Part shown: in pieces, positions 3,715-5,215 of the stretch
Layout: each line of letters opens with the position of its first letter
Position numbering within the stretch: position 1 is the first letter of the stretch
Source of the DNA: an uncultured beta proteobacterium
GTDB lineage: Bacteria > Pseudomonadota > Gammaproteobacteria > Burkholderiales > Rhodocyclaceae
Direction of reading: 5' to 3'
NCBI GenBank assembly: GCA_903916205.1
Contig: CAIWVX010000282.1
Coordinates: forward strand, 1-5,215
Length of the DNA: 5,215 bases
Notes under the pieces: generated by a model
Seen by the model: the letters and a program-made list of their open reading frames with translations, nothing else
Told to the model about the DNA's origin: nothing
The model's database searches: none
Translations under genes and position numbers: made by a program

Positions 3715-5109
3715 ATGCCCCACAGATACGACGATAACGCTACTTCAGACCTGTTTGCCGACTTGCTGACGTCCGACAGCGAGCCCCCCGCGCCCCCCGC
3801 CCCCCCCGCCCCCCCCGCACCGCCTATCGTGCCGGTTATTAACGACGGCGTCGATGACGGCGAGAGTATTTTGCTACACGAATCAGCCTCGCGCGATTAC
3901 CTTGAATATGCCATCGCTGTGGTCAAGGGCCGTGCTTTGCCCGACGTGAAAGATGGTCAGAAACCGGTGCAGCGCCGGGTGCTGTTTGCCATGCGCGAAC
4001 TCGGGCTAATGGCCGGGGCTAAACCGGTTAAGTCGGCACGGGTGGTTGGCGATGTGATCGGTAAATACCATCCGCATGGAGACTCGTCTTCTTACGAAGC
4101 GATGGTGCGCATTGCGCAGCCTTTCTCTTTGCGTTATCCGTTGGTTGATGGGCAGGGTAATTTTGGCTCACGCGATGGCGATAACGCGGCGGCCATGCGT
4201 TACACCGAGGCGCGTTTGGCGCCCATTGCCGAGTTGTTGCTGGGCGAACTCGGCGAAGGCACCGTCGACTTTCAGCCCAATTACGACGGCTCTTTCCAGG
4301 AACCGGCTTTCCTGCCCGCCCGCTTGCCTTTTTCGCTGCTTAATGGCGCGTCAGGAATCGCCGTCGGCATGGCAACTGAAATGCCCTCGCACAACTTGCG
4401 TGAGGTGGCTGCGGCGGCGATTCACAAATTGCAAAACCCAACGGCGGGCGTGGCCGAATTGATGCAGCACATCCCCGGCCCGGATTATCCCGGTGGCGGG
4501 CAGATCATCTCGACCGCCGCCGAAATCGCTGGGGCCTATAGCAGCGGACGCGGTAGCTTGCGTGTGCGGGCCCGCTACGAGTTTGAAGAAATGGCGCGTG
4601 GCGCGTGGCAACTCATTATCACCGAACTGCCCCCCGGTGTTTCCAGCGCCAAGATTCTCACTGAAATCGGCGCGTTGATGAATCCGCAACCGAAACCGGG
4701 CAAGAAAGCCGTTGAACAATCGGCGATGCAACTGAAAGCACTGTTCGCCTCGCAACTCGAACGGGCTCGCGACGAATCGGGCAAAGAGGCCGACATCCGC
4801 TTGGTCTTTGAGCCGAGCAGTTCGCGCCTCGACCGTGATGATTTTGTGGCGCTACTGTTGGCGCACACCAGCTTGGAAACGACCTCTCCGATCAACCTCG
4901 TGGCGGTCGGCATCGACGGTCGTCCATGCCAGAAAACGCTAGCCGATCTGGTGGGCGAGTGGTGCCAGTTCCGCGTTACCACGGTACGGCGACGTACTGA
5001 ATTCCGCTTAGATAAAGCCAACGACCGTATTCACATTCTCGAAGGTCGGCATATCGTCTTCCTCAACATCGACGAAGTAATCCACTTGATCCGCGAACCA
5101 CACGAGCCA
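3715..5109 (+). CDS. parC: DNA topoisomerase IV subunit A, 5' part; homology ends before the right edge
   Basis: ParC is the DNA-breaking and rejoining subunit of topoisomerase IV, acting with ParE to decatenate sister chromosomes. The 465 recognisable residues comprise a disordered N-terminal extension (DLFADLL, then a proline-alanine tract at 24-37), the winged-helix/tower region with QKPVQRRVLFAM, the quinolone-resistance region HPHGDSSSYEA (S124 and E128, the residue types of sensitive enzymes), and the catalytic tyrosine Y163 in AAMRYTE. LHTS-type DNA-gate and HILEGRHIVFLNIDEVI sequences follow. Full-length family members are about 750-770 residues, so the end of the coiled coil and the C-terminal beta-pinwheel are absent. 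The expected EPKPAL continuation is replaced after EPHEP (about 5109) by unrelated sequence. The ATG at 3715 has GGA nine bases upstream; the in-frame ATG at 3709 is an alternative. The NFGSRDGD and PGGGQIIS motifs point to the betaproteobacterial type. The frame remains open to 5215 but with non-ParC sequence. Confidence 0.93.
3784..3825 (+). repeat. 9-bp tandem repeats (Pro-Pro-Ala) in the parC N-terminus
   Basis: Four consecutive copies of a nine-base unit CCCCCCGCN, followed by CCGCCT, encode (PPA)4-PP at ParC residues 24-37. The tract includes runs of eight cytosines. It lies in a variable, probably disordered linker ahead of the conserved breakage-reunion domain. ParC sequence on both sides (DLFADLL before, ESASRDYLEYA after) is in the same frame, so the frame is correct as given. 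Such tracts are prone to slippage and to sequencing error. Its polyproline-containing product is the kind of sequence for which EF-P, the target of EarP, assists translation. Confidence 0.9.
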
Positions 5110-5132
5110 ACCTCACTGCGGGGAATAGCAAA

Positions 5133-5160
5133 TCGAGCAAAAGAACATAATTTTGCTCGA
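5133..5160 (+). repeat. Perfect 10-bp inverted repeat (stem-loop)
   Basis: TCGAGCAAAA at 5133-5142 pairs perfectly with TTTTGCTCGA at 5151-5160 around the 8-base loop GAACATAA. The structure follows the point where ParC similarity stops. Within a group II intron fragment it could be the residue of domain III or IV. It is not followed by a T-run on the plus strand, so a simple intrinsic terminator is unlikely. Confidence 0.85.
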
Positions 5161-5182
5161 CGCGAAAGCGAGTACAACCGAA

Positions 5183-5215
5183 GAACCGGATGCGGGAAAA
5201 CTGCACGTCCGGGAC
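5183..5215 (+). ncRNA. Group II intron domain V-like hairpin
   Basis: The 33 bases fold like domain V (canonically 34). There is a lower helix with CCGGA (5186-5190) pairing TCCGG (5208-5212), closed by a T5191-G5207 wobble. A two-base bulge AC (5205-5206) interrupts the 3' strand. The upper helix GCGG (5192-5195) pairs CTGC (5201-5204), and the loop is GAAAA. The catalytic triad position reads AAC (5184-5186) rather than the usual AGC, and the bottom of the stem has A-A and A-G mismatches, so the copy may be divergent or degenerate. Domain V is the most conserved part of group II introns and holds the catalytic metal site. The match is from memory of the family, not a covariance-model search. 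Confidence 0.5.

What the first reader, a model, noticed from the sequence alone, without database searches (positions are those of the whole stretch)
5101..5215. parC loses homology mid-gene and runs into structured non-coding sequence
ParC is essential in most bacteria, yet its recognisable sequence stops at about residue 465, before the end of the coiled coil and the whole C-terminal domain. The next 106 bases are unrelated but keep the frame open. Either a mobile intron splits an essential gene and must be spliced out (or, if dead, there is another topoisomerase IV), or the assembly joins parC to a repeat.
Basis: partly seen in the sequence, partly recalled or inferred. Interest (0 to 1): 0.75.

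Follow-up and report, generated by a model that had tools for sequence, protein, structure and literature searches.

The report
Gene runs into severed intron end
A contig from a bacterial genome passes, right at its end, from the gene for a DNA-untangling enzyme into the last part of a known kind of mobile self-splicing intron; the stretch lacks roughly the intron's first three quarters and would be unable to splice, and the join is likely a sequencing or assembly artefact (or else a dead intron fragment), so this is ordinary.

Summary
ParC coding sequence runs to about base 5097 (residue 463). Bases 5098-5215 (118 nt) are the 3' part of a group II intron (family with Rfam D1-D4-6 members) without a maturase gene in domain IV: the end of the segment before domain IV, a short domain IV hairpin, and domain V ending at the last base of the contig.

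The tail is shorter than a common 150-base read and lies at the edge of a 501-contig, 79%-complete assembly, in an intron family where other assemblies break too. ParC is under strong purifying selection up to the join and uninterrupted in the 29 relatives examined. I favour an assembly or library join to a repeated intron (0.47), then a genuine 5'-truncated dead copy in parC (0.36; such copies occur naturally), then an intact intron whose 5' part was skipped (0.1). Reads were not available, so the join is unproven. Low interest.

The parts
3709..5097 (+). 5' part of parC (topoisomerase IV subunit A), residues 1-463, open reading frame intact
   Evidence: TIGR01062 model positions 2-397 of 735 and PF00521; 75-90% identity to 19 same-genus ParC; dN/dS 0.02-0.08 against 6 relatives
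5097..5098 (+). junction between parC and intron sequence (place uncertain by a few bases)
   Evidence: 29 relatives' parC compared at the site; intron alignment from 5100
5098..5215 (+). 3' portion of a group II intron without maturase gene in the part seen, lacking about the first 600 nt
   Evidence: 78% identity over 120 columns to positions 623-741 of an 800-nt stretch holding a full-length copy in L070, E 3e-23; L070 and other relatives carry RF02005
5100..5130 (+). segment just before domain IV; CACGAG (5101-5106) matches the 3' strand of a possible stem whose 5' strand CTCGTG is absent here
   Evidence: alignment with L054, L062, L068, L070, L072, L074 and others; the stem is read by eye from these copies
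5133..5160 (+). short domain IV hairpin, 10 bp, no maturase gene
   Evidence: fold; in maturase-bearing relatives the alignment breaks at about the same place, reference positions about 650-686
5183..5215 (+). domain V hairpin (paired 5186-5212), ends at the last base of the contig
   Evidence: RF00029 partial match, 21.2 bits, E 0.018, under the gathering score of 40, domain VI being beyond the contig end; same domain V in 30 stretches of named genomes by pattern

Best explanation
The last 118 bases are the 3' part of a group II intron without a maturase gene, joined at about 5097/5098 to an intact parC reading frame, and the join is likely an artefact of sequencing or assembly at the edge of a repeated intron rather than a functional intron in parC. 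Shown: identity, orientation and incompleteness of the intron piece, and its position at the contig end. Inferred: that chimeric reads or the assembly joined a mid-intron sequence to parC, and that the contig stops because other copies of the same intron in the sample share this sequence. As it stands the piece would not splice, because domain I, the exon-binding sites and the 5' splice site are absent.
For: (1) The tail aligns to the last part of a full-length intron and starts about 600 nt inside a roughly 760-nt element, not at an intron end. (2) The tail is 118 nt, less than a common 150-base read (recalled), and the contig ends there. Contigs of other assemblies break inside the same intron family: two contigs with k141 in their names share exactly 141 starting bases (L056/L063), as do L066/L071. 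118 would equal k-1 for k = 119, a default step of MEGAHIT (recalled). (3) ParC up to the join is under strong purifying selection, dN/dS 0.02-0.08; of 19 same-genus ParC loci 17 continue to a normal stop and 2 run off their contigs still open; ParE-scoring genes (best match at least 559 bits, my cut) are present in 24 of 28 same-genus genomes, so losing topoisomerase IV would be unusual. (4) No other piece of this intron is seen in the held genome: no RF02005, no second copy of the tail beyond 26 nt, and the only RVT_1 match is the C366 one, which I read as not of an intron. (5) Among 28 same-genus genomes the other matches are 30-34 nt of domain V in 4 genomes.
Against: Reads across the join should exist for an assembler to make it; parC and intron share too little sequence there for a k-mer misjoin alone. 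5'-truncated group II copies are natural: the closest relative found, L082, matches a full copy only from reference position 234 although 1,111 nt upstream were available, inside a contig of a 7-contig genome, L045 and L053 match only from 686 on, and this genome holds another truncated one inside contig C236. Contig-end overlaps among 63 readable contigs of G000 were 27-99 nt, not 118, so k = 119 is not supported there. The held genome is incomplete and contigs under 3 kb read as N (60 of 123 fetched), so absence of other pieces is weak evidence.
Confidence: 0.47

Rival explanations
1. A genuine, dead 5'-truncated group II intron copy sits in parC of at least part of the population. It would have arrived by incomplete reverse transcription or lost its 5' part by deletion, and would end ParC after residue 463 plus at least 39 intron-encoded residues.
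For: A contig that ends about one k-mer inside a mobile element often marks a real repeat boundary (general knowledge). Most bacterial group II copies are truncated or inactivated (PMC4424553 and PMC4028801, passages). Copies lacking the 5' part occur in other genomes: L082 (from reference position 234, 1,111 nt upstream available), L045 and L053 (from 686, with 6,550 and 2,133 nt upstream; no RF02005 in either locus, though a 63-nt match to the intron start lies elsewhere in L053). The same genome has a 5'-truncated fragment at C236:2945-3386.
Against: It would disable an otherwise conserved gene, so it needs a second copy, loss of the need for topoisomerase IV, or a minor strain. No further intron of this class seen in the held genome.
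Confidence: 0.36
2. A complete intron (about 760 nt) interrupts parC close to this place and splices, but its first 600 nt were skipped in the assembly.
For: Orientation is the right one for a splicing intron in parC. Full-length copies without maturase gene exist in this family (L070, L072, L074), and bacterial introns without their own maturase gene nearly always share a genome with related introns whose protein may act in trans (PMC4424553, passage). [quoted passage not shown]
Against: No domain I of this type and no clear group II maturase of this class is found in the held genome. Most bacterial group II introns lie outside housekeeping genes (PMC4424553, passage). None of 19 same-genus ParC loci is interrupted in the part seen.
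Confidence: 0.1
3. The tail is a natural variant C-terminal region of ParC.
For: The frame stays open to the contig end.
Against: The tail is homologous to intron RNA; in 8 of 8 intron copies whose matching frame the script could set (of 11 aligned), that frame has stops. The frame stays open in 1115 of 5000 shuffles. A protein search with residues 450-502 gave no scoring match, but that search drew only 1 candidate although its first residues are ordinary ParC, so it is a weak negative.
Confidence: 0.01

Closest known systems
Group II introns with Rfam RF02005 (group-II-D1D4-6) and domain V of RF00029, in Chromatiaceae, Desulfocapsa, Thiodiazotropha and other genomes
   Same: Same sequence over the segment before domain IV, a maturase-free domain IV in several copies, and domain V
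   Different: The window copy lacks the first ~600 nt (domain I region, 5' splice site), has its own short AT-rich domain IV hairpin, and is cut by the contig end before domain VI
Truncated group II intron copies of bacteria (PMC4424553, PMC4028801; passages read)
   Same: Part of the intron missing, not able to splice as it stands
   Different: Here it abuts the middle of parC and the 3' end is not seen; its existence in the cell is unproven
Group II fragment in the same genome, G000:C236:2945-3386
   Same: 5'-truncated, ends in domains V-VI (57.1 bits)
   Different: Other domain V (GAGCCGTGTGCGG...), keeps the end of a maturase-like ORF (read by eye), lies inside a contig

Membership tests
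Group II intron (as a fragment) | Domain V hairpin of about 34 nt with conserved sequence | tested here: met
   RF00029 positions 6-33 matched at 5186-5212, 21.2 bits, E 0.018 in a 126-nt search, below the gathering score of 40 with domain VI absent; in the whole-window search it was not listed; nearly the same domain V follows annotated maturase genes in L008 and L009
Group II intron (as a fragment) | Domain I with exon-binding sites and 5' end GUGYG | tested here: not met
   No D1-D4 family match in the window, no RF02005 in the held genome; alignment to a full-length copy starts at reference position 623
Group II intron (as a fragment) | Domain VI with branch-point A and 3' splice site | not testable with these tools
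   The contig ends at the last base of domain V
RF02005 (group-II-D1D4-6) type | Domains I-IV model match | tested here: inconclusive
   The window lacks the modelled region. Of related loci, RF02005 reached gathering in 6 of 10, 4 of 20 and 3 of 12 sources; L082, the closest, did not; several are cut by contig ends, and L048, L061 and L074 also hold D1-D4 matches of other types
Splicing-competent intron in parC | 5' exon directly followed by intron 5' end; 3' exon after domain VI | tested here: not met
   5' exon is followed by mid-intron sequence; the 3' part of parC is not found in the held genome
ParC / topoisomerase IV subunit A | N-terminal breakage-reunion domain (PF00521) plus C-terminal beta-propeller | tested here: inconclusive
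   PF00521 positions 1-362 of 432 present, the rest cut by the join and contig end

The most novel reading that the evidence does not exclude
In the living population parC really is interrupted by this group II intron fragment, so a lineage with an otherwise conserved topoisomerase IV has just lost it (or carries a second copy), catching an essential-gene knockout by a retroelement in the act.
Probability: 0.3. Interest if true: 0.4.

Novelty: new member of a known kind. Interest (0 to 1): 0.15.

Why it matters
As an artefact it matters as a caution: the edge of a metagenome contig can look like an intron-split essential gene because mobile-intron ends are repeated and break assemblies. If the join were real, it would be a natural test of whether gyrase can replace topoisomerase IV in this genus, and of how often 5'-truncated retrointrons hit essential genes.

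Tried and rejected
Intron 5' end after parC: rejected, the tail is the 3' part. Inverted intron: rejected, domain V is on the + strand. Trans-splicing of a split intron: rejected, the 5' exon would have to be followed by domain I (established knowledge). Natural ParC tail: rejected on the intron alignment; the protein search for the tail is a weak negative, since it drew only 1 candidate even though its first residues are ordinary ParC. Microhomology at the join: an ACGARCC motif is shared between ParC DNA of relatives and the intron, but 5098, 5100 and 5101 already differ from the common native codons, so I do not count it. Inferring the assembler's k from contig-end overlaps in G000: no uniform overlap (27-99 nt in 11 matches among 63 readable contigs); left as unsupported. 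A first version of that script gave useless output because many contigs read as N. Finding the same intron's upstream sequence: no exact match in viral contigs for two patterns, one domain V match (L212, maturase type by eye); with 5098-5170 only G000 itself among 398 phylum genomes; 8 of 369 class genomes, G000 included, at E 1e-8 or better, of which two others (G290, G261) align over nearly the whole tail at 80% and 77%; plasmids gave only short matches in the domain V part (28 and 7 records); phages and E. coli none. Loss of topoisomerase IV in the genus: not the rule. Papers: the search for 'group II intron' with 'parC' listed 15 of 22 papers; by title none of the 15 reports such an intron (listing only).

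Full report
Setting. The window is the whole of contig C282 of an assembly of 2,245,836 bases in 501 contigs, 79% complete and 5% contaminated. Among the listed ParC homologues that carry an organism name, Propionivibrio is the commonest, so this is a betaproteobacterial bin near that genus (inference). The window holds, in order, an EarP-like ORF on the minus strand (my reading of the ORF, not tested), uvrC, pgsA, a small HTH gene and the 5' part of parC.

The join. ParC matches its family model only to position 397 of 735. I compared the site in the 29 relatives' loci held, of 38 genomes with a match: all continue the frame; 27 reach a stop 336-358 codons later and 2 (L016, L030) run off their contigs still open. 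12 of the 19 same-genus ones read CGC GAR TCS GAC GAR CC. The window agrees to CGC GAA (5097) and then reads CCA CAC GAG CCA ACC, which none of the 29 has. The join is about 5097|5098 and the tail is 118 nt.

What the tail is. Blast against plasmids matched its end to sequence at or just after group II maturase genes (L008, L009). Rfam matched domain V (RF00029) at 5186-5212, below its gathering score. A pattern scan of named genomes gave 30 stretches with the same domain V and its 5' flank. Nine of them (L052, L054, L059, L062, L068, L070, L072, L073, L074) hold a copy without maturase gene in the part seen that aligns with the window over the segment before domain IV as well; so do L082 and L083. 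Against one full-length copy (L070) the window aligns from position 623 to 741 of an 800-nt stretch; the intron takes up roughly positions 27 to 783 (my estimate from shared ends), so about 600 nt are missing on the 5' side. RF02005 (domains I-IV, type 6) reached its gathering score in 6 of 10, 4 of 20 and 3 of 12 related sources searched; several of the rest are cut by contig ends. CACGAG at 5101-5106 corresponds to the 3' strand of a stem, read by eye, whose 5' strand CTCGTG lies in the missing part. The tail folds better than shuffles, z = -3.79, with a 10-bp hairpin where relatives have the maturase gene.

Consequences. A group II intron needs domain I and the 5' splice site next to the 5' exon. 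Here the 5' exon is next to mid-intron sequence. The piece would not splice in cis, and this is also not the layout of a trans-splicing split intron (established knowledge). Domain VI and the 3' splice site are beyond the contig end and untested. The open frame through the tail is unremarkable: 1115 of 5000 shuffles do the same.

Artefact or real? For an artefact: the tail is shorter than a common 150-base read and is the contig's edge; contigs of other assemblies break inside the same intron family, sharing 140-141 bases where names say k141; ParC is under strong purifying selection to the join (dN/dS 0.02-0.08 against six relatives); 19 of 23 same-genus genomes other than G000 gave a ParC-level match, none interrupted in the part seen (17 to a stop, 2 off the contig), while 4 (G010, G015, G020, G022) gave only GyrA-level matches; ParE-scoring genes (at least 559 bits, my cut) occur in 24 of 28 same-genus genomes; and no other part of the intron is seen in the held genome (the one RVT_1 match, looks like another kind of retroelement). 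For a real insertion: assemblers do not join unrelated sequence without reads (general knowledge); truncated copies are the majority in bacteria (PMC4424553 and PMC4028801, passages); the closest relative found, L082, is itself without its first part (from reference position 234) inside a contig of a 7-contig genome, and L045 and L053 keep only the part from 686 on; and a second 5'-truncated fragment of another type lies inside C236 of this same genome. A weak point of the artefact case is that contig-end overlaps in this assembly do not show k = 119. A weak point of all absence evidence is that contigs under 3 kb read as N (60 of 123 fetched) and that even GyrA, GyrB and ParE were not found in the held part. 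A protein search with ParC residues 450-502 found no scoring match, but it drew only one candidate and counts for little.

Verdict. Element identity and orientation are secure. Cis-splicing from this copy is excluded as far as the sequence goes. The origin of the join is open, and I lean to an artefact at a repeated intron. Low interest either way, unless reads prove the insertion.

Noticed in passing
G000:C236:2945-3386 (L011): A second group II intron remnant of another type: end of a maturase-like ORF followed by complete domains V-VI (57.1 bits), 5' part missing.
   Followed up: partly
G000:C366:605-1240 (L010): The only RVT_1 reverse transcriptase match of the held genome lies beside repeats that read like formylglycine-generating-enzyme/sulfatase-modifying C-terminal ends; it looks like a diversity-generating retroelement (recalled resemblance, not tested).
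   Followed up: no
window 3355-3621: Small HTH_31/HTH_3 ORF, weakly like type II antitoxins, that seems to lose its usual C-terminal end; possible toxin-antitoxin remnant between pgsA and parC.
   Followed up: no
window 1-3708 against L016, L017, L020: Neighbours of parC differ: here uvrC-pgsA-HTH precede parC; in G009 and G018 a parE-like ORF precedes it, in G021 fliI/fliJ-like ORFs (named by eye).
   Followed up: partly
G010, G015, G020, G022 (same genus): Only GyrA-level matches to ParC in 4 of 23 same-genus genomes; G010 and G022 also lack a full ParE-scoring gene. Could be binning gaps or loss of topoisomerase IV.
   Followed up: partly
window, about 3784-3826: C-rich low-complexity stretch coding for Ala-Pro-Pro repeats in the ParC N-terminus; similar proline-rich leaders in relatives (P0001, P0009).
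   Followed up: no
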